Origin: Falciphora oryzae
Lineage: Eukaryota > Ascomycota > Sordariomycetes > Magnaporthales > Magnaporthaceae
Direction of reading: 5' to 3'
Length of the DNA: 64,000 nucleotides
NCBI GenBank assembly: GCA_000733355.1
Contig: JNVV01000017.1
Coordinates: 232,934 to 296,933 of the forward strand
Both the position numbers and the translations under genes were made by a program. The notes under the pieces were generated by a model. It was given only the letters and a program-made list of their open reading frames with translations. It was not told the origin of the DNA and made no database searches. Shown in pieces: positions 27,713 through 61,780 of the stretch; within the stretch, counting starts at the first letter, position 1; each line of letters begins with the position of its first letter.

Positions 27713-28681
27713 GTGCTGGAGTGCGGGCACGAGCACGGCGTCCGGCTGCTTAACGACAATAAGGACGACGACGCAGTGACGGTCCTATTGACCGTGTGGG
27801 AACGCAGGAAGTCGCTCGGTGAGGCTTATAACAGTGCTTCGATGGAGACGGCGCTTTACCTCGTCGACGTTTCGGTCAAAACGGATAACACTTCGCGGCT
27901 CGAAACGTTGTACCAATGGATTACCCAGAACGCGACGGATTAGGGAGAGGCGGACCGGCTGTGGGTACGGTACCATTTGGGGTGCGTCCAAGCAGTGTTG
28001 CAAAAGAACGCGGTGGCCGAAAACAACCTGCGCCGGGCGCTCCGCAGGCAGCAGAAGGTGTCCGGCAAAAACGATCCGAACACGCTGCAATACACCCAAA
28101 TATTTGCCGAGGCATTGCGGCGCGCGCAGCGTGGCGAGGACGCGATGGTGCTCGTCAAAAACGCCTGGGAAACAAGGCAACGATGCCCGCACGGCACGCT
28201 ACTGGCGGTGCTGTGCATCGGCCACCCGTGCGGCGACATTCCGTCCGAATCCAACATGCCAAAGGACCTGGCGACGGCCGAGGGGGTGCTGCGGGAGGTG
28301 TGGGATGCCGTGGGCCAGAACCTGTTGACCATGACAGTGTCAGCATCGGAGCTGTCCGCCTCGCAGCTCTCGGGGCTCGTATCGTCGGGCGACTGCTACG
28401 CCCTTGTGCTCATGAAGCGGCAGATGTTTGCTGCGGCCAAGGAGGTTCTGGCGCCCGTGCTGGACTGGAAGCGGTGGGCGCCGCTCAATGTAGACCCGGC
28501 GGGCGCGGAGCACACCAACTACCTGCTTAACAAGGCCGACGAACTTGAGCTCAAGGAGTCAACCGAGAACGGGAAGATCAATTACATCCCGAAGGCGCGC
28601 TACCACCCGCCGAGACTGAGACACCTCCTCGACCGCTGGTTCAGCACCGGCACCGTTGCTGGGTACATTGCGGGTTCGTGA
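27713..28681 (+). pseudogene. TPR-repeat protein with one nonsense codon
   Basis: One frame is open from 27713 to the stop at 28681 except for TAG at 27941-27943. Sequence on both sides is coherent and helical: DAVTVLLTVWERRKSLGEA, YQWITQNATD-stop-GEADRLWVRYHLGCVQAVL, NNLRRALRRQQKVSGKNDPN. These are tetratricopeptide-type units found behind NB-ARC domains in fungal NLRs. The TAG is one C-to-T step from CAG. The true 5' end is not visible: the annotated left end is a GTG within repeats, and no NB-ARC core is present upstream. It is either the truncated sensor tail of a former NLR or a free TPR protein. Confidence 0.5.
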
Positions 28682-42382: not shown

Positions 42383-42870
42383 CGATACATCGTTGGCACC
42401 AAGGGGCTCGCGATCGCGTTTGGGGGGCCGGGATATAACGCCGAAAAATATGGCCTGAAGGCTTACGGAGACGCCTCGTTCGCCAACCGCTTCCGCACGA
42501 GGGCATCTACAGGCGACCTGGTGGTGATGCTAGCAGGAGGACCGGTTTATTGGCAGTCCAAGAAGCAGATGCTCGTCACTACATCAACAAAGGCGGAGTT
42601 CGTCGGCCTCCTGCCTACCGGACGTGCTCTACTTTGGGTCAACGGCATCCTCAGCGAGACGGGCTACCCTTAGCGGGAGACCCTGGTGGGCGCACGCTAA
42701 TAGTGCTCAACACATATGCTACAGTGCTGAGCCCCCCGGAGTCGGCCCGCAGCCGGATAATCAACTTACGCTACAAGTGGGTGATCGACGCTGTGATCAG
42801 GCCACTGCACGACAGCACCCATTGGAACCCAGGTGGTTTCTGCGATTTAGCCGGTTAACTGACGAGCAAG
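42383..42870 (+). mobile_element. Ty1/Copia RNase H remnant
   Basis: Reads RYIVGTKGLAIAFGGPGYN, KAYGDASFANRFRTRASTGD, VYWQSKKQMLVTTSTKAEF and ALLWVNGILSETGYP-stop, then in another frame RIINLRYKWVIDAVIRP. These match the Copia RNase H signature (YxDADWAxxxxxRxSTxGxxhxh...SxKQxxhxxSTxEAEh...HIxhxxHhhRxxh). The DNA ends about 40 bp before the 3' end of the HeLo gene. Confidence 0.85.
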
Positions 42871-42907: not shown

Positions 42908-43795
42908 TCATTGTGTTCCAGACTCTGTCTCCTGTCCAGGAGCATCGAATACAGACTTTGCGTTTGCGTACCCAATGACATTGCCAAAGTGAGTGACTGA
43001 ATACCCACCAGCTTTGACCCCCCTAACCACAGTACTTCTCGCGCTAGCCGCCTGCGCAACGATGTCACCGTAGTGTCCGCGAGCGTTGCCTTCCAGTACG
43101 ACGTCGGAAAAGAGATTGGGACGCTGCTGGGCCTCAGTTTGGAGAACCGCTCTGAGCATCTCGTCGTCGTCCCCGATGGCCTTGTCTAAAAGAGCCAAGC
43201 TCTCGGTGTCCAAGCCCCCGACCTCGCTTTTACACATCTGCTTCTGAGCATCGCGGGTTGAGGGAAAGAGCTCCACCAGCTGGCTTGTGAGAGCAGAGAT
43301 CGTCTCGATCAGGTTCTGGAACGCGCCTTTCTGATAAAGAGCCCATTTGATCCGGTCTCTCACTCTAGGCTTGACGCGCCGGTCGACCATTCCGCGCATA
43401 TGCTTGTGCAGTGTCTGAAGCGCGCCGCTCCCTTTGCAAAGCTGCGTATCCGTGTCCAGAAGCTGAAGCTTCTCGGGCTTGGCGATTCCCCTGTAGCGCG
43501 CCGAGGTCCGCATCGCGGAATCGAAGGCTTGCCGGATTTCGAGAAGCCAGCGGTAGGCCGTCTTGACTTCTTCTTCATCGTAGCCGTCGCTGCGAAACTT
43601 CGTCTCTGGATCCCCGATGCCCATGGATGCCCCCCAGCGCGTCAGTCGCATCTCAGAGGCTTCAAGTTGGCACCATGTTCTTTCAAAGTCGTCCTCGAAA
43701 TCGCGTCCGAACTGTATGTACCCAAAGCATTGGACGCAGGTTGCGAATGCCCCGGGAATGCCGGCTACGGCAAGAGCGAGGCTGACGGGTTCCAT
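42908..43795 (-). CDS. HET-S-like HeLo-domain protein with C-terminal amyloid repeats
   Basis: Single exon, 295 residues from ATG 43795; Podospora HET-S is 289. The HeLo domain (about 1-225) has the short hydrophobic start SLALAVAGIPGAFATCVQCF, then GYIQFGRDFEDDFERTWCQL, EMRLTRWG, SARYRG and a Trp-bearing helix RIKWALYQKGAFQNLIETIS, in the same order as HET-S. Residues after 225 look like two prion-forming repeats: R1 at 231-246 (DVVLEGNARGHYGDIV) and R2 at 255-274 (TVVRGVKAGGYSVTHFGNVI). In HET-S the equivalent repeats form a beta-solenoid amyloid that unfolds the HeLo domain into a membrane-targeting toxin, giving cell death. It is divergent from the NLR gene 905 bp away, whose N-terminus carries a related motif. 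The 36 in-frame codons upstream of ATG 43795 lack family resemblance. Confidence 0.85.
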   Translation of the reverse strand: MEPVSLALAVAGIPGAFATCVQCFGYIQFGRDFEDDFERTWCQLEASEMRLTRWGASMGIGDPETKFRSDGYDEEEVKTAYRWLLEIRQAFDSAMRTSARYRGIAKPEKLQLLDTDTQLCKGSGALQTLHKHMRGMVDRRVKPRVRDRIKWALYQKGAFQNLIETISALTSQLVELFPSTRDAQKQMCKSEVGGLDTESLALLDKAIGDDDEMLRAVLQTEAQQRPNLFSDVVLEGNARGHYGDIVAQAASARSTVVRGVKAGGYSVTHFGNVIGYANAKSVFDAPGQETESGTQ

Positions 43796-44700
43796 TGGTC
43801 GCTGTATAAACAGCGTGCTAGTACGTAGGCGTTTTGGGCCAGCGGATGTCGCCCAGGTCCCAATGGGGGGTGAGGGACAGAAGAGAGGAGCCGGCCGGAA
43901 CAACTGAGCGCGAGAGGCAGGCTATGCAAGATATAAGGACTGGTTGCCCGGCACGCAATTCGGTGGGCGAGGGTCTATATAATCCATCACAATGCACGCA
44001 TGCAACAAATTAGAAGGCCTGAAGAGTGTGTGGTGGGCCAACTTGCAGAAGACAGGCGACTGATGCAGCCATTGGGCCTCGCACTCTGGCCAATCGGACA
44101 GGATAAAAAGGGCCACACTAGGCAGCCTCCAACAGCCATGGCCTGTTCTTTGCACACGGGCGTATGCCATGCCTAGGCCCACAGAATGGTGGGTTGTGAT
44201 TGTCGGGTGGTCTGCAGCGATTATTACCATCCTGGGTTCCAATAGGGGCTGTCGTGCGGTGGCCCGACTGATACGTGTACTAGGCGGATGCCACCCAAAG
44301 TTGCAGCTGGTGTTGCAGCATAATGCAGAGGCATTCGAGGCGGGGCATGTGGAAAAAGTAAGCGATGCCCTGGGGCATGTCTGCCTTTGAATGGGCAGGC
44401 TGAGCCACGCTGAGCCACGCTTCGTACGGGCTCCCTCCATTGCTCGGGCAATGCACCGCCAGGGTGGTTGCACCGGGACGTGGATGATCTGGAGGTCAAA
44501 TGCAGCCCTGCCCAACGAACAGCATCAGTGTCCTTCCACCGCATTCTCGCTGCCGGCCCGCCACTCATATTCTTGATCAAAGGCGAATCCCATTCGGCTG
44601 GTGGCCGCGACAACCTGGTCGCTCGCGATGAGTACGCGATGCAGAAAAGGACTCATTGAAACACTCACGACCAAAGCAATCGATTGCACAATTACCTACA
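43796..44700. promoter_or_regulatory. Shared divergent intergenic region of the HeLo/NLR pair
   Basis: 905 bp between the two ATGs, presumably holding both promoters. Its middle contains a Copia remnant (44222-44400). No TATA box or operator is convincing by eye. Confidence 0.5.
44222..44400 (-). mobile_element. Copia remnant, inverse orientation
   Basis: The reverse strand reads GIRLVHVSVGPPHDSPYWNP, similar to Copia RNase H tails (hxhVxTxxxxADxhTK). At DNA level a 26-29 bp block GCACGACAGC..ATTGGAACCCAGG is an inverted match to about 42805-42835. It therefore forms, with the remnant at 42383-42870, an inverted pair around the HeLo gene. Confidence 0.55.
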
Positions 44701-47127
44701 ATGTCTATTCTAATGCGCGACACTGCCGTCCAGGGGAATGCTAGAGTTCACGTCGGAAACAATGTCTTTCTACCTGCGGAAAACGCAACCCCAAAGTCCC
44801 ACCGGGTCATCCCGTTCGATCGCAACCTGAATGTCGTCGTCCGCGATGGCATCTTCGCGGAGCTCGAAACACTGCTTCCCCCGTCCACCGGCTGCCGCAG
44901 CGCCGCCCTCTGGGGTCTTGGCGGGTCTGGGTAAGTTAAAGCGGCTGGCATTTTAAAGGGCAATGCTGGCGGAGGCAATGCTGACGGACCCAGAAAAACG
45001 CAGGTCGCACTCGAGTACGCCTGGCGCCGCGCCGAGGACCCCGCCTGCTCTGTCTTCTGGGTGCAGGCGGATGACGAAGCCACGTTCGCGCAGAGCTACA
45101 AGAAGATTGCGGAGGAGCTGGGTTTGGGAGGCGTCGAAGGCGAGAAACTCCTGGCGGCTGTGCAGAAGCGGATCGAAGCCGAGCCGTGCTGGGTGCTCGT
45201 CCTCGACAATGCGGACAACCTTAATCTGTTTGGCGTCGGCCAGACCTCGGCAACGACCGGCCTGCGTGGCTTTGTCCCACGCGCCGTGTCAGGGACGGTG
45301 CTGTGGACGAGCCGTGACGAGCGGATTGGCGGACTCGTCGGACCACCGCGGGCGATCAACGTGGCTCGCATGACAGACAAAGAGGCGATGGCACTACTCG
45401 AGAGAGTCCGGGGCAAAGCCGTTGGCGACGAGATGGACGACGCGAAAGCCCTCCTGTCCGAGCTCGATTGGCTGCCACTCGCTATCTCGCAAGCCGCGGC
45501 ATACCTGTGGTTGAACAAGATGCCGATCAAAAGCTATCTATCCAAACTGCGGAACGGCAAGAAGCGCTGGGAGGTGCTTAAGCAGTCACAGTTCGACCCG
45601 CATCGCCGGTACGACGTGCCAAACAGCATCCTTGAAACGTGGGCCATCTCGATCAAGCAAATCCGGGGTGAGAGCAGCATGGCATACAACATCCTCCACG
45701 TCCAGGCTTTCTTGGATAACGAGAACATTCCGTTTGAATTGATCCAAAAGGCGGCGACATTAGGCGACGTTGATGGCGTCGACGACGAGGACGTCTTTAC
45801 GGCTGCTGCCCGTCTCCAACATTTCTCCTTCTTCACCAAGCGTACAGACGGGCTTGTGTACGATATGCACAAGCTCGTCCAGGAGGCGGCACGGTACAGC
45901 CTAAAAACGGAGGACGCGGCGCATTTCGCGCGGGCGGCTCTTCGGGTTATGGCAGATCTGTTCCCTGAGCGGCGGCGGGAGCTGTGGGACACGTGCGAGA
46001 AGTATCTTGTGCATGCGCAGCGGGTGGGCGAGTGGGCGGAGCTGTCTAGGCAGGCAGTGGAAACGTCGGCGCTTTTGACACGTATCTCAAACTACCTTTT
46101 CGACTGCGGGAGGTGGAGAGAGAAGGAGCCTGTGGATGTAAAAGCGTACGAGCTTAGGAAGACAGCGCTAGGCAAAAGGCATCCCGATACGATCCGGAGC
46201 ATGGCAGAGCTTGCAGCGACATACCACGGCCAAGGGAGATACGACGATGCCGATAAGATCCAAGTTAAGGTGTTGGCACTGCGGCGCGAGGTGCTAGGCG
46301 AAAAGCATCCCGATACGATTTGGAGTATGGCGAGCCTTGCAACGATATACCACGGCCAAGGGAAATACGACGATGCCGAAAAGATCCAAATCGAGGTGTT
46401 GGCACTGCGGCGCGAGGTGCTAGGCGAAAGGCATCCGTATACGATTTTCAGTATGGCGAACCTTGCAGCGACATACCAGGCCCAAGGGAAATATAACACT
46501 GCCGAGAAGATTAAAGTCGAGGTGCTAGGCGAAAGGCATCCCGACACGATTTGGAGTATGGCGAGCCTTGCAACGATATACCACGGCCAAGGGAAATACG
46601 ACGATGCCGAAAAGATCCAAATCGAGGTGTTGGCACTGCGGCGCGAGGTGCTAGGCGAAAGGCATCCGTATACGATTTTCAGTATAGCGAACCTTGCAGC
46701 GACATACTACGGCCAAAGGAAATACGACGATGCCGAGAAGATCCATCGAGACGCTTTAGCATTACGGAGCGAATTTCTAGGCGAGAGGCATCCTGATACA
46801 CTTGTTAGTATGCACTACCTTGCACAGACACGGTACATGCTGGGCCGGAAAAGAGAGGCAGCAGAGATGATGGACGAGTGCTGCGAGCAGCGGCGCGTTG
46901 TTTTAGGCGCGGACCACCCGGATACGCGAGAGTCTGAGCGTGAGCTAGTTGCGTGGAAGGGAGCGGCGTCAGAGATGATGGATGAGTGCTGCGAGCAGCG
47001 GCACGTTGTTCTAGGCGCGGACCACCCGCGTACGCGAGAGTCTGAGCGTGGGCTAGTTGCGTGGAAGGGAGCGGCGTCAAAGGGGGGTTCATTTCGGACC
47101 AGGCTTTCAAAGTACCTCGGTTTCTAG
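44701..47127 (+). CDS. NB-ARC/TPR NOD-like receptor with N-terminal amyloid motif
   Basis: Exons 44701-44930 and 44994-47127 give 787 residues. The 63-nt intron (GTAAGT, CTGAC, CCAG) splits the Walker A codon and restores GLGGSGKT at 72-79. Residues 7-22 (DTAVQGNARVHVGNNV) form a HET-s-type amyloid motif closely like R1 of the neighbouring HeLo protein. Other NB-ARC marks are Walker B WVLVLDNADN, TVLWTSRDERI, LPLAISQAAAYL and an MHD-like MHKLVQ. From about residue 460 come about seven tetratricopeptide units of 42 residues (SMASLATIYHGQGKYDDAEK), several nearly identical in DNA, then a duplicated 36-residue tail. Known NWD2-type receptors oligomerise on ligand binding and template the HeLo partner into amyloid, triggering cell death. 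No lesion is visible. Confidence 0.92.
46315..46477 (+). repeat. TPR-coding direct repeat, copy 1 (163 bp)
   Basis: Identical to 46546-46708 except one G/A difference (46455 against 46686). Confidence 0.93.
46546..46708 (+). repeat. TPR-coding direct repeat, copy 2 (163 bp)
   Basis: Second copy, 231 bp (77 codons) downstream of the first. The intervening unit is one of 42 codons plus a short one of 35 that lacks seven codons (LALRREV). Confidence 0.93.
46864..47079 (+). repeat. Tandem 108-bp duplication in the NLR tail
   Basis: Two adjacent 108-bp copies (46864-46971, 46972-47079) encode EMMDECCEQRxVVLGADHPx and TRESERxLVAWKGAAS twice, with a handful of differences. Confidence 0.95.
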
Positions 47128-48954: not shown

Positions 48955-49416
48955 CTACCTCTCCGCTAGCACCTCTGGGTCATTCCGAGCTTCTTCACAA
49001 ATACCCTTCATCCGAGCGTATAGTCCTTGGTCTTCTCGCTTCCACTTCCTCCCATCTGGAAACACGACTCTTCGCAGCCGACCTACCCAGGGAATTAATG
49101 GTTGGTAGTATTCGCTGAAGAAGTCCGTCATGGTCTTGTCAAAAACCCCATCGTCAGACACCGTGCCCAGTTTCTCCTTTGCCAACAATTCCATGCTGGT
49201 GTAATTCCACTGGTCAAACTCAGGAAGGACTCTGCTTTTATATGGCCCGTAGTAGTGGACGCATATCCAGAATAGGACCCAAAAGAATGACTTGAGGTCG
49301 TGCATGAAGGAATGCTGCTCGCCGAGAAGCGCCCCGATTGCCATGAACGCCCGCGTACCGGTTTTGCCCTTTGCTCCGGAGGCGTCTTCTCGTGGCTGTC
49401 TTACGGCGAGGCCCAC
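48955..49416 (-). pseudogene. FunK1-type fungal protein kinase, C-terminal fragment
   Basis: Reads VGLAVRQPREDASGAKGKTG, TRAFMAIGALLGEQHSFMHD, LKSFFWVLFWICVHYYGP, then YYQPLIPWVGRLRRVVFPDG. This matches the activation loop (GTxxFMAhxxL), helix F (HDLESFFWVLhWIC) and tail of FunK1 kinases. The DFG-equivalent, usually DLDLA, reads NVGLA, so the metal-binding Asp is missing. The N-lobe upstream is broken into several frames (to about 49700). FunK1 genes are frequent in accessory regions of filamentous fungi; their role is poorly known. Confidence 0.75.
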
Positions 49417-51373: not shown

Positions 51374-53969
51374 TTACGCTCGCGTGACTGTGAACTTCTT
51401 GCCAGCCTCTCCTTGCAGCTTGAGCACGGCCCCTTGTCCGACCCCGTCGACTTTAATAGCTTGCGCCGTTCCCGAATTCGCAGCAGCATCCCCGATGGGC
51501 ACGTCGCCCAGCATGACCCAGGCCGTGTTACCTTTCACGCTCGTGATGACCGCCCTCGTTAGCTTGGCGTCGGCGCCCCAGGACGCCTCGACCTCGAACC
51601 CGCCGCGCGCCAGCAGGCCCCTGAAATAGCCTCCGCCGCTGGACGCCCACTGGGTCGGGATGGCGGGGATGAGGCGGATGAGGTGGTGTGCGTTCTTGCC
51701 GCCGTTGGAGTCGCCCACGAATGCGGGTTTGAGGCCGCGGGCGTCGCTCACCACCACGGAGGCGTTGGAGGGAAGCGCGACGAGCTCGTGGCTTTGAAGG
51801 AGGGCTTCGACGAGGGTGGAGCCGCCGTAGTTGCCGTCGAGCTGGAATACCGAAGGGGGGTTCATGTCGAGCATGGAGTTGGGGTAAGTCAGGCGGGTGA
51901 GGAGGTACTTGTAGCTGTCAGCCACCCCGGCGCCATCCAAGAGGCGTCCGAGAAGGGCGACGGCCCAGGCGCGGGACCAGCCGGTGGAGCCACTGCCGTT
52001 GCTAAGTCGACGGCGGACGGCCGCCCTGGCGAGGTCGAAGGAGGTTCGGTTGGCCGAAGTGATGCGGCTTCCGGGGAAAAGACACCAGAGGTGGGAGAAG
52101 TGGCGGTGTCCCGGTTCGTTCTCGGTGAAGTCACGGTACCACTCGGCCAAGCCGCCGTATTGATCCTTGCGCAAGGGCATAAGGCGGGCCCGCGCAGCCA
52201 TGAAGCGTCGCGAAAGGGCACCTCCGTCGCTGGCGCCGATGATCTTTTCCATCTCCAGCATCTGGCCCGCTAGCTCCCAAAGGAGGCAGTTGTCCATGGT
52301 CGGGGCGATGGACATGGCGACGACCTGCCCACCGTTGGGCGCGCGGTATCGCTGCTCGGGCGAGACGGACGGGTTGCTAACCAGGTAGCCGTTGTATTCG
52401 GTCAGGAAGTCAAGGAAAAAGGAAGCGACATCGCGCAAGACCGGGTAATAAGCTTTAAGGACTTCCGAATCTCCCGTAAAATCGTAGTGCTCGAAGATGT
52501 GCGTTACCAACCAAGCCAGGCCGCTGGGCCAGAATGTCGAACCCGTGTCGTTATCCTGGGGTGCGCAGTCTCCCCATAGGTCCGTGTTGTGGTGGCAAAC
52601 GGCGCCCGACATGTTGTACATCCTTTTGGCCACATCGCGGCCGTTTTCCTGCATCCGCTTGAGGTGCTTAAACATAGAGTCATGGAGCTCCGGCATATCT
52701 GCGAGGCATTGTCAACACAAAACCCATTTCCAGTAAGAGTTGGGCTGCTTCGTATGTAAAAGGGAAAAGCATACTCGTGACAAGTGCGGGCCAGTAATTC
52801 ATTTCCAAGTTGATATTGATGGTGAATTTAGACCCCCACGCCGGATTGGGGCTGTCGTTCCAGATGCCTTGCAGGTTCGCCGGCAGCGTTCCCGGCCTCG
52901 CGCTCGCGATAAGCAGGTAGCGGGCAAAGTACCAGTACAGCGTCGAGATCTCCGGGTCGAACGTGTTGGCCAAGCCACGGAGTCTATCCGCCGTGGGCTT
53001 GGACTTTTGCGCACTGGACGAGGTACCCAGGCTGAGCTCGACGCGGCCCGCCAGTGCCTTGTAATCTTTGATATGGTCAGCTCGAATAGCGTAGTAGCCT
53101 TTCGCGGACGCGCGGGCGAGGTCGGCAAGAACGGCGGACTGCAGGTCGCCCTTTGCCTTGCGGAAAGTTGTCCACGCCGACCAATAGATGACGGCCGAGT
53201 CGGCGCCGTCGACGGTGATGGTGTCTCCGGACTTCCTGACGGTGCCGCCCGTGGTGACGACCTTGGCTCCGGCGGTGAGAGAGATGGAGTTGCCGCCGCT
53301 CATGACGATGGTGTCGCTGCCAGGGGCGCTGGCCGAGTTCTGTCCGGAGGCGAGCGTCTGGCGCAAGTCGAAGGACACGGCGCCGCTCTTGCTAGCCGAG
53401 ATCTGGACGGCGATGATATCGTCGGGGAAGCTGGCCAGGTACTCCCTTTTGAAGGCCACGCCACCTACGGTGTAGTAGACCCCGCCGATGGCCTCCCCCA
53501 GGTCCAGCCATCGCTCGTAGCCACCAACCGATCCCGAAGCTCCTTTCATTGAAATGCTGAGTCTGCCAGGGTAGTCGTAGTTGCGCATCGAGTTGGGCGT
53601 CCCGGCGTAGTTGGTTGACGCGACACTATGTGCGCCGTTGAGGTCGTTGTTCACGATCATGGAGCGGATCCGGCCCAGGTTGGACAGGGCGTTGCGGTTA
53701 ACGCGGTCCATCTTGGCGCCGGACCAGAACGAATCCTCGTTGAGCACAATCGTCTCAGAGGTGGCGCTGCCGGGGAGCGAGAAGCCAAGACGCCCGTTGC
53801 CGATGAGGAAGCTGTCGCTGTAAGTGGTGCCGGCCGACGTCTGCCACATGCGCATGGGGTTGGATGCCGAGTTGGGCGGCGTGATGTCTGCAGCAGTGGC
53901 GCCGACCGTCATCCAGCCCGCGGCCAGCGCCGAAGCGAAGGCCTTGAGTCCGTCCCGAACCGAAGGCAT
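51374..53969 (-). CDS. Secreted GH95 alpha-L-fucosidase
   Basis: Exons 53969-52775 and 52698-51374 around a 76-nt intron (GTATGC...CGCAG) give 839 residues, the usual GH95 size. A signal peptide (FASALAAGWMTVGATA) precedes the N-terminal beta domain (MRMWQTSAGTTYSDSFLIGN). The (alpha/alpha)6 barrel holds the family marks: NINLEMNYW (about 384-392), CHHNTDLWG (433-441), ENEPGHRHFSHLW (around E591/E593) and FQLDGNYGG with D686. In the bifidobacterial enzyme the Asn pair, Glu and Asp at these places form the catalytic site, acting with inversion. It removes fucose (alpha-1,2 or L-galactose analogues) from plant or animal glycans outside the cell. Nothing is broken. A degenerate partial copy lies about 2.5 kb further along the same strand. 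Confidence 0.93.
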
Positions 53970-54036
53970 AGTGTCTTAGCGAAGGCGCGTGCGCGCGTCG
54001 GTATGTCAGTGCCCAGGTGTCTGCCATTCTGGGCCC

Positions 54037-59023: not shown

Positions 59024-61490
59024 TCACGACGAGGGTGCTCGGGAAGGATTCCGGGGCGTCGAGGGTATTCCAGGTAGGGCGAGCGGGCTTGGCGACAGCT
59101 CGAGTGAGTCCGTGGCTTGCGCCTCAAAGTTGAAGATGCTGTCAAAGGCACACGCAAGGCGGCAGTCGTCGCTGATGCGGGAGATGCGGCCCAGTCCGAG
59201 GTGGGCGTGCTTGGCCATGTCGAGCGCCGAGCGCTGCACGCCGGCGAGGAACTCGGAGACGCTGGTGGAGTGGTCAGCCAGCACGCGGTAAGGAACCGTG
59301 GCAATGGTCGGGCCGGCGATGCCTTGGACGTTGGGGATGTCGGCGACGGCAGATTCCCGCCCGGAGACGGTGGCGCCAAATACCGTGTCGCAGCTCGCCG
59401 TGTAGTGAGAAATCGTCAAGGCCATGCGGCGTGTGATATACTGGCCAGGCTCGCTCCCAGATGACGGTATGTCTCCATGGGCGGCAGGGTAATCTTCTGG
59501 TTGGCGACGATGGGGGAGGCCGAGGCCGGGACCTCACCCTCCTGCTGCCTCCGCCGACTTATGCGCGGAGGAAAAGCAGCATCGGCGAATCCAGCCAGCT
59601 TGTCTCTCCAAAAATCAGACGCCCCTTGCTCGCTCCGGCTGGCCAGGTGTTTAATGAAGACTTCGAAAGGGGTGATGCTCGTTGCCGTTTCCGGGGCGGA
59701 ATTGCCAGCACTGGGTTGACGGTCAAGCTTCATCGGATCCAGGGTCCTCTGCTGCACCATCTGCAGCGACCAGGCGTCGTAGAGAGCATGGTGCAAGCTA
59801 AATACAGTCTGCACCATCTCGTCGTCGTCATCTTGGCGGGCCGAGTCGGGCACCGGCTCAACGACGGTGAAGTGAACCAGCGGGTTGCCGACGACCTCCA
59901 GGGCGCAGACGCGATCCATGAAGCCTTCGATGCTGTGCACATTTTCCCAGCGCAGCGACAGATTGCCGAGAACTACCTGCAGCGCGCCGTGAGCGTCGAT
60001 GTCGTCCAGGATGACGATGGTTCTCAGGACCTCGGAGGTGCGCAGGACAGACTCCCAGGCATCTTGGAGCCGCTTGAGATGCCCACGCGGCAGCCGGACC
60101 CCACGAAACATAATGTACGACCCACGGTGCCTGGAGGTCAGGGCAACGAGAGCCTGCTGCAACGGCGTCGCCGGGTATGCGTTCTTGACATCCTCCCACG
60201 CGATTCCGTAGCGGTCTGGGAGTTGCGCCTTGAGGTGTGAAACGCTCCTTCGCTCTAGCGGTTCGAAGGGCTCGATAACTACCGACGGCACAGCAGATGG
60301 ACTAGACCCGGGTGCACTCGGCCCTGGGTGTCCCAGAGCGCCAGTGGGCTTCGTGGCCATGTCCATCAGAACCGGCGAGAGCACCACGTCGCTATAAGGC
60401 AGCAGACGCCCCTGGAGCGTGCGAGGCCAGCAAGACGGATGGCCGAGACGGAGCTGCCGCCCATGGCCAAGAAGTGATCATCATGGCCAATGGAGTCCTC
60501 GTCGACACCCAGAACTTCGGCCAGAGGCTCCATAGCGAGAGCTCGTGGGGGTCATCTATCGCGTTTGGGTTCGGGATGGCTACTGCTCCTGTTGCTGCTG
60601 CCGCTGCGCCTGATGACCGGTCAGGCGATCCAGCCGCAGCAGTCGCCGGGAGTTCGTTCAAGTACGTCCTAACAAAGTCGCGATCGACCTTGCCAGAGGA
60701 CTTGGTTAGAAGCCGGCCGACCAGGACGAGCAAGGAGGGCACCATGTAGGCAGGCAGCAGGCCGCGCAGGCGTCGGCGCATCTCGTGCGCGGCTCGGAGC
60801 GGCTGCTCGTCGGCGGCTCTCCCTGTGCCCGGCGCGGATGGTAGCAGAGTATTGGGGACCTGGAGAAACGGGACGCCGAGAACTTGCTGGTCCATGGCTA
60901 CATCACCCACCGTAAGCAGAGCCGCCAGGGTTGGTTCCTGGGCCGCTTGGTGCACCCGAACGGCGACATGGCTAAAGTGTAATCTGCCAGCCATGAGCTT
61001 TTGTATGTGGTACTCAACCTCGGCAACTTCGATGCGGTGGCCCCGGATTTTGACTTGGCTGTCGACTCCGCCCAGGAATTCCATAGACCCGTCGGCCAGG
61101 TATCTGACCATGTCGGCGGTCCGGTACATGTGTGTCGGTCGCGGCGTCGTTTGAGGAGATGAAGACCCAGCATCTGCAACGGCGGCATGAAGAGGAGGAG
61201 GATGAAGAGGATATATGACGAACGAGGCCCAAGTTCGCTGCTCGTTCTGCCAATATCCGGACGCCAGACCAGGCCCGGCCAGGTAGAGCTCGCCGATCGC
61301 CCCGACCGGACAGATGGACCCGGTCTGCGGGCTGACCACCCAGGCGGCGACGGCGTCGTCGCCTTCGGGTGGAATCCTCCGGGTCATGGTGAGGATGCTG
61401 GCCTCGGTGGGGCCGCAGCCGTTGAAGAGCTGGCGGCCGGCCCACGCGTCGATGCTGGTCGGAGCTCCGCGCGGTCGAGAGCCCGTGGCT
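59024..61490 (-). pseudogene. NRPS remnant: partial A, T and C domains
   Basis: In coding order: A-domain core A5 [11 protein letters not shown]6 [16 protein letters not shown]7/A8 [17 protein letters not shown] and [16 protein letters not shown]10 [11 protein letters not shown]. The thiolation motif [18 protein letters not shown] follows, with its phosphopantetheine Ser present. The condensation domain has SLHHALYDAWSLQMV (HHxxxDxW kept), then DTVFGATVSGR. At least three frameshifts separate these parts: before T, between T and C, and at about 59425 where one base is missing from a Trp-Ala junction (relatives read AAWAL). The A domain starts abruptly at about 61490. Functional enzymes activate one amino acid and condense it with another. 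Here only a dead module remains, beside aminotransferase and monooxygenase relics. Confidence 0.85.
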
Positions 61491-61780
61491 CCAGGTCCAC
61501 GGCTTGGCCCCGGGACTACACTATGGTAAGAAGCAGCTTTAATTCCTCACTTTCTATAGTACCCCCTACATAGGTAGGGGGGAAACTATAGCAGATTACG
61601 GACACTGACAAAAAGGCTTCATTAGGACAGCAAGCATTTGAAGGGGTACAGGGTAAATTGTGCAATATCCTTTTGTATCAATGACCCTCTTTTTTTTTTT
61701 TTGGAGCGAGTCTCGCCAAAGGAAAAAAAAGCCAAGCAGCCACTAACGGTGTAGTGCAAATAAGAACTATGTAGCCAGAC
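61491..61780. other. AT-rich breakpoint-like spacer
   Basis: AT-rich stretch with T11 and A8 runs and the CCCCCTACATAGGTAGGGGG hairpin at 61562-61581, directly where the NRPS A domain is cut off and before the truncated aminotransferase. Confidence 0.5.

What the first reader, a model, noticed from the sequence alone, without database searches (positions are those of the whole stretch)
42908..47127. HeLo effector and NLR sensor joined by a shared amyloid motif: a two-gene prion-signalled cell-death module
Seen: a 295-aa HET-S-like HeLo protein (minus) diverges from a 787-aa NB-ARC/TPR receptor (plus). Receptor residues 7-22 (DTAVQGNARVHVGNNV) align without gaps to HeLo residues 231-246 (DVVLEGNARGHYGDIV), identical at 8 of 16 positions including GNAR, H and G. 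Known: in Podospora, NWD2 N-terminal motif templates HET-S C-terminal repeats into beta-solenoid amyloid. Inferred: the same wiring operates here, but with a TPR sensor in place of WD repeats and its own motif variant, so it may define a signalling-specific motif class that does not cross-talk with HET-s.
Basis: partly seen in the sequence, partly recalled or inferred. Interest (0 to 1): 0.92.

Follow-up and report, generated by a model that had tools for sequence, protein, structure and literature searches.

The report
Fungal amyloid-triggered cell-death gene pair
Two neighbouring fungal genes, a predicted membrane-killing protein and its immune sensor, share a short prion-like motif by which the sensor probably switches on the killer; it is a well-supported new example of a kind already known in fungi.

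The parts
42908..43795 (-). HeLo effector gene, 295 aa, single open frame
   Evidence: ORF; PF14479 E 2.1e-37; 21 homologues
43199..43780 (-). HeLo domain, residues 6-199 (predicted membrane-targeting cell-death domain)
43061..43123 (-). r1, first amyloid-type repeat, HeLo residues 225-245
   Evidence: can be placed in 21 of 22 members of A1; modelled strands 228-230, 233-234, 239-242, 245-246
42977..43039 (-). r2, second amyloid-type repeat, HeLo residues 253-273, 7 residues after r1
   Evidence: can be placed in 21 of 22 members of A1; modelled strands 256-258, 261-262, 267-270, 273-274, i.e. offset 28 from r1
43796..44700 (.). 905-bp intergenic region between the two divergent start codons
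   Evidence: coordinates
44701..44930 (+). receptor exon 1 (residues 1-76 and two bases of codon 77)
44701..44766 (+). r0, single amyloid-type motif, receptor residues 1-22
   Evidence: profile score 26.3, 0 of 101,023 background windows as high; with r1 and r2 the only instances scoring 12 or more in six frames of the window
44931..44993 (+). 63-bp intron inside the P-loop
   Evidence: GT-AG, frame restored; same break in own-genome paralogues
44994..47127 (+). receptor exon 2
44890..45225 (+). P-loop NTPase core (AAA_22, residues 64-154; P-loop 72-79, Walker B 143-151); intron inside
   Evidence: motif names recalled
45865..45882 (+). MHD-like motif MHKLVQ, residues 368-373
   Evidence: position; motif name recalled
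46129..47073 (+). TPR array, 42-residue repeats (two spacings of 35-36)
   Evidence: TPR_10 7 stretches, TPR_12 6 stretches; a 231-bp composite unit present twice with 95% matches; HP.T anchors; outer limits approximate

Best explanation
A two-gene, HET-s-related amyloid signalling module. The NB/TPR receptor carries one motif copy (r0) at its very N-terminus; the neighbouring, divergently transcribed HeLo protein carries two copies (r1, r2) in its C-terminal tail. Proposed order of events: a ligand binds the TPR array; the NTPase domain oligomerises and gathers several r0 motifs, which fold into a stack of beta-solenoid rungs; this templates r1-r2 of the HeLo protein into the same two-rung solenoid; the HeLo domain is released and its N-terminal hydrophobic helix inserts into membrane, killing the cell. 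Shown here: the two genes, their domains, the three motif copies, their statistical relation, the presence of both repeats in related HeLo proteins, and a modelled tail that resembles the HET-s amyloid. Inferred from studied relatives: ligand sensing, oligomerisation, amyloid templating, membrane attack and cell death.
Confidence: 0.9

Rival explanations
1. The motif is shared, but the pathway is dead or the HeLo protein is a non-toxic, HET-s-like form, so no cell death is triggered.
For: Receptor paralogue matches on C92, C97, C9 and C108 contain stops, though single stops can be introns read through, as in the window's own exon-1 match; C108 has eight. r0-like relics lie elsewhere in the genome.
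Against: Both window genes are open, with P-loop, Walker B and MHD-like motifs; the HeLo protein lacks the proline that the HET-s chain 2wvn shows at the site where HET-S chain 2wvo has histidine (alignment; that this site separates the inactive from the active form is recalled).
Confidence: 0.1
2. The pair works in recognition of other strains of the same species (vegetative incompatibility) rather than in defence against other organisms.
For: [Het-s] is such a system; the TPR array holds a 231-bp composite unit twice at 95%, and highly conserved repeats with copy-number change and concerted evolution are described for fungal NLRs (PMC5485727 passages; PMC4986451 passages).
Against: PMC7885112 (passages) does not take HELLP for a natural incompatibility gene; PMC7889193 (passages) says that only [Het-s] and sigma occur as natural prions.
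Confidence: 0.15
3. The similarity is chance or reflects only G/N-rich composition.
For: The motif is short and G, N and A are common in loops.
Against: 0 of 5,000 composition-preserving shuffles and 0 of 101,023 windows reach the profile score; two independent profiles agree on the same register at residue 1.
Confidence: 0.02

Closest known systems
FNT1/HELLF of Podospora anserina (HRAM5)
   Same: Two adjacent genes; NB-ARC/TPR receptor with one N-terminal r0; cell-death effector with two tail repeats of the HRAM type (PMC7885112, passages). A P. anserina TPR receptor (P0046) is 56% identical over 655 aligned columns; whether P0046 is FNT1 was not established.
   Different: HELLF has a HeLo-like domain; here it is a true HeLo (PF14479). 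The Podospora relative P0046 has a different N-terminal motif.
NWD2/HET-S of Podospora anserina (HRAM1)
   Same: HeLo domain on the HET-S fold; r0, r1 and r2 arrangement; tail model aligns with the HET-s amyloid.
   Different: NWD2 is NACHT/WD; PF11558 does not match this tail.
HeLo + NB-ARC/TPR pairs of Arthroderma otae and A. gypseum
   Same: HeLo effector beside a NB-ARC/TPR receptor with a shared terminal motif (PMC3321046, section 8).
   Different: There the shared motif is PP (FxGx(x)NxGLQLxGxNxGxL), not the HET-s type.
All-in-one HeLo-NB-TPR receptors, e.g. Fusarium oxysporum FOXG_15699 (P0038)
   Same: Same three kinds of domain; HeLo part 30% identical, receptor part 59% over 82% of the 140-residue query.
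   Different: One polypeptide; no HET-s-type repeat seen in it.

Membership tests
HRAM-type two-gene amyloid signalosome | effector with HeLo or HeLo-like domain | tested here: met
HRAM-type two-gene amyloid signalosome | two ~21-residue tail repeats with G at position 19 and a 6-18 residue linker | tested here: met
   r1 225-245, r2 253-273, linker 7; G19 in all 21 r1 and all 21 r2 compared, of 22 members; criteria from PMC4518210 Results
HRAM-type two-gene amyloid signalosome | hydrophobic residues at positions 5, 8, 10, 16, 18 | tested here: inconclusive
   r1: F,V,L,G,Y; r2: V,V,A,T,F; r0: M,T,V,V,V: one site of five deviates in each repeat, 16 in r1 and r2 and 8 in r0
HRAM-type two-gene amyloid signalosome | adjacent NLR gene with one copy of the same motif at its extreme N-terminus | tested here: met
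   r0 at residues 1-22, genes 905 bp apart
HRAM-type two-gene amyloid signalosome | beta-solenoid fold of the repeats | tested here: inconclusive
   AF2 with alignment and VIA-align support it; Foldseek E 1.4 and the single-sequence model do not
HRAM-type two-gene amyloid signalosome | amyloid formation and templating from receptor to effector | not testable with these tools
   needs Thioflavin-T, foci and barrage assays
canonical HET-s prion domain (PF11558, HRAM1) | match to the Pfam model | tested here: not met
   no match at E <= 1 in any of 22 members. Only 38 of 155 published HRAM proteins match it. The own-genome search also found none, but its control genomes rang nowhere
HRAM1 to HRAM5 classes | class-marker residues: N3 (1), Q3 (2), H3 (3), Q18 (4), Q16 (5) | tested here: inconclusive
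   N3 in 12 of 21 r1 but 1 of 21 r2; H3 in 3 of 21 r1 and 2 of 21 r2; no Q at 3, 16 or 18 in any of the 42 repeats; published class profiles not held
HELLF/FNT1 type | HeLo-like (HELL) effector domain | tested here: not met
   Pfam gives HeLo only, at E <= 1
PP-motif signalosomes | pseudopalindrome FxGx(x)NxGLQLxGxNxGxL in both partners | tested here: not met
   no GLQL core in either terminus, by inspection against the consensus
NB-ARC/TPR NLR | PF00931 NB-ARC domain | tested here: inconclusive
   not listed for this protein at E <= 0.1; 10 of 15 aligned members match
NB-ARC/TPR NLR | C-terminal TPR array | tested here: met
   TPR_10 E 1.7e-72, 7 stretches; the family profile matches kinesin light chain TPR structures and 4y6c, whose depositors' name reads 'anserina putative kinesin light chain'

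The most novel reading that the evidence does not exclude
This HeLo clade, with relatives among the 120 listed profile hits in Fusarium, Penicillium, Aspergillus, Talaromyces and Cephalotrichum, defines its own amyloid signalling class with a private code (mostly aromatic 5 and 18, H17, small residue at 16) that does not cross-seed with HET-s, HELLF or HELLP. In this genome it is wired to a TPR receptor, with further r0-like N-terminal mini-ORFs scattered elsewhere that could act as free seeds or decoys.
Probability: 0.15. Interest if true: 0.5.

Novelty: new member of a known kind. Interest (0 to 1): 0.32.

Why it matters
It adds a clear HeLo plus NB/TPR pair joined by a HET-s-type motif, a mix of parts whose separate combinations are published, and it supplies a matched r0/r1/r2 set with relatives for asking what sets seeding specificity between amyloid motifs of one fold. 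It also suggests that receptor and effector modules are exchanged while the motif keeps them matched. It would not change the accepted picture of fungal amyloid signalling.

Tried and rejected
Chance similarity was tested with shuffles, real receptor N-termini and profiles, and rejected. PF11558 in the whole own genome: no match, but the control genomes did not ring either, so this does not show absence. Own-genome search for other r1-r2 tails: only the window's own, at E <= 10; a divergent tail could be missed. Loci were held for 8 of 22 HeLo matches, one of them the window's; the ORFs of the seven others show no such tail by eye and no six-frame profile hit of 12 or more; the other 14 matches were not examined for tails. 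The cut-off of 12 also misses the L039 relic (11.2). Charge pairing between r1 and r2 over 21 proteins: in register 19 opposite and 14 like; 12 of the like pairs are at position 1, but leaving that position out was thought of after seeing it, so no weight is put on it. Single-sequence AF2 of the tail: helical, pLDDT 51. A weak TPR match at 27944-28678 is unrelated to the receptor. No solved structure was found for the NTPase part by single-sequence search at E <= 0.1; the family profile matched TPR proteins only. Whether P0046 is FNT1 could not be settled.
Full report
What is there. On the minus strand, 42908-43795 reads as one open frame of 295 residues with a HeLo domain at residues 6-199 (PF14479, E 2.1e-37). 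On the plus strand, 44701-47127 encodes a 787-residue receptor once a 63-bp GT-AG intron, 44931-44993, is removed. The intron sits inside the P-loop; paralogues in the same genome on C92, C51 and, decayed, C108 show the same break after GLGGSG, and most annotated relatives read GLGGSGKT without interruption. The receptor has a P-loop (72-79), Walker B (143-151), LPLA (237-242) and an MHD-like MHKLVQ (368-373) (motif names recalled), and a TPR array with 7 TPR_10 stretches. Pfam lists AAA_22 and DUF7779 rather than NB-ARC for it, but 10 of 15 aligned members match NB-ARC, so 'NB-ARC/TPR' is right at family level. The two start codons are 905 bp apart and the genes diverge.

The motif. There are three copies, not two: r0 at receptor residues 1-22, r1 at HeLo 225-245, r2 at HeLo 253-273 with a 7-residue linker. 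Numbered so that the conserved glycine is position 19, r0 position equals receptor residue number. Both HeLo repeats can be placed in 21 of the 22 members of alignment A1 (the exception, P0019, lacks the tail). The relatives include proteins of Fusarium decemcellulare, F. albosuccineum, Penicillium expansum and Talaromyces stipitatus. A profile search found 122 HeLo proteins among the 7,995 candidates scored and listed 120; of the 100 that were new, 32 have two repeats scoring at least 8 bits and 25 have one, so 43 have none.

Is it above chance. Ungapped BLOSUM62 score 45; 1 of 5,000 shuffles of receptor 1-34 reaches it against the HeLo tail, 0 of 5,000 against the whole HeLo; 0 of 114 N-termini of other receptors reach it, best 33 (6 of 120 skipped). 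Profiles built from 19 r1 and 19 r2 segments, leaving out the window and P0001, each place r0 at residue 1 with 24.8 and 21.0 bits, 26.3 together; the next best place in the receptor is below zero. 0 of 101,023 windows from 120 related receptors and 0 of 5,000 shuffles are as high. Among the best of those background windows are further receptor N-termini (P0050, P0140, P0087, P0125), which fits an N-terminal motif class, beside internal segments such as one of P0048. In six-frame scans of the window the profile finds r1, r2 and r0 and nothing else at 12 or more; among the other loci held one further instance appears, at 14.6. A DNA pattern for the r0 core (A-R-V-[QH]-V-G-N, with a slightly wider second codon) occurs three times in 50.2 Mb, reversed control 0. 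Of 42 repeats in 21 HeLo proteins, the window's own r1 is the best match to the window's r0 (45; next 40), which hints at matching within the pair, though this is one pair only.

Genome and relatives. The own genome has 22 HeLo matches; a search with the r1-r2 tail finds only the window's. It has r0-like relics elsewhere: an isolated r0 plus linker with no NTPase seen in the readable sequence after it (L039) and a set of short ORFs beginning MASNAVDN or a decayed form, three of four with a decayed motif, two of the four matched only at E 0.06-0.1. The receptor's relatives carry various N-termini in front of the same linker: a Gaeumannomyces relative has a related motif (P0023; 8 of 22 identical to r0, but weak against the HeLo profiles), M. 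poae P0022 keeps only the second half, Madurella has an r1-like one (P0050; 15.8), Podospora P0046 a different one, and in Fusarium oxysporum a HeLo domain is fused directly (P0038). This fusion is independent evidence that HeLo and this receptor type work together.

How it most likely works. By analogy with NWD2/HET-S and FNT1/HELLF: ligand binding by the TPR array, oligomerisation of the NTPase domain, r0 stacking into a beta-solenoid, templating of r1-r2, release of the HeLo domain and membrane attack. Shown here are parts, motif relation and a plausible fold; every dynamic step is inferred.

What is known. PMC4518210 (abstract, Results and one Discussion section read) describes 155 HeLo-related proteins with two HET-s-type repeats, 98 beside a receptor with one r0, in five classes proposed not to cross-seed. 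PMC3321046 (section 8 read, otherwise passages) describes HeLo proteins beside NB-ARC/TPR receptors with the PP motif, and HeLo-NB-ARC-TPR fusions. PMC7885112 (passages) describes FNT1/HELLF: NB-ARC/TPR receptor, HRAM5 motif, no cross-seeding with HET-s. PMC12258605 (passages) counts amyloid N-termini on NB-ARC receptors in Sordariales (87, 56%). PMC9815663, PMC7889193, PMC5485727 and PMC4986451 were seen in passages. I did not see the exact mix of true HeLo, HET-s-type motif and NB-ARC/TPR receptor as a two-gene pair in the text read or in the listings of four paper searches; supplementary tables were not held, so it may well be listed there.

Verdict. Observation confirmed and extended; mechanism supported by analogy; novelty claim not supported. 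A new member of a known kind.

Noticed in passing
L039 (G000:C60:131468-134400), about 278-535: An isolated r0 plus the conserved receptor linker (71% identical over receptor residues 9-49) with no NTPase domain seen after it in the readable sequence: a relic of a second r0 receptor, or a solo motif mini-ORF.
   Followed up: partly
L050-L053 (G000 contigs C60, C70, C15): Four scattered short ORFs beginning MASNAVDN or a decayed form of it; the C60 copy carries an ARVQVGN core, the motif is decayed in the other three, two of which match only at E 0.06-0.1.
   Followed up: partly
G000:C17:190416-192339 (about 41 kb before the window): HeLo match (one TGA in frame) followed by receptor matches: looks like an all-in-one HeLo receptor on the same contig.
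   Followed up: no
L005, L006, L007: Three very similar HeLo genes on different contigs, without HET-s-type repeats, resembling by eye the HeLo part of a fused HeLo-NB-TPR protein of Schizothecium (P0059).
   Followed up: no
window 42455-42673 (+): Fragment that reads by eye like the RNase H end of a copia-type retrotransposon just beyond the HeLo stop; no Pfam match.
   Followed up: partly
window 48955-49344 (-): ORF whose first 28 residues match the C-terminal end of a fungal FunK1-type kinase (PF17667, E 9e-10), about 1.8 kb after the receptor.
   Followed up: no
window 51374-53975 (-): Glycoside hydrolase family 95 gene read in two overlapping frames, as with an intron or a frameshift.
   Followed up: no
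window 59416-61546 (-): Condensation-domain match and a sub-threshold AMP-binding match in two frames: possibly part of a non-ribosomal peptide synthetase-like gene.
   Followed up: no
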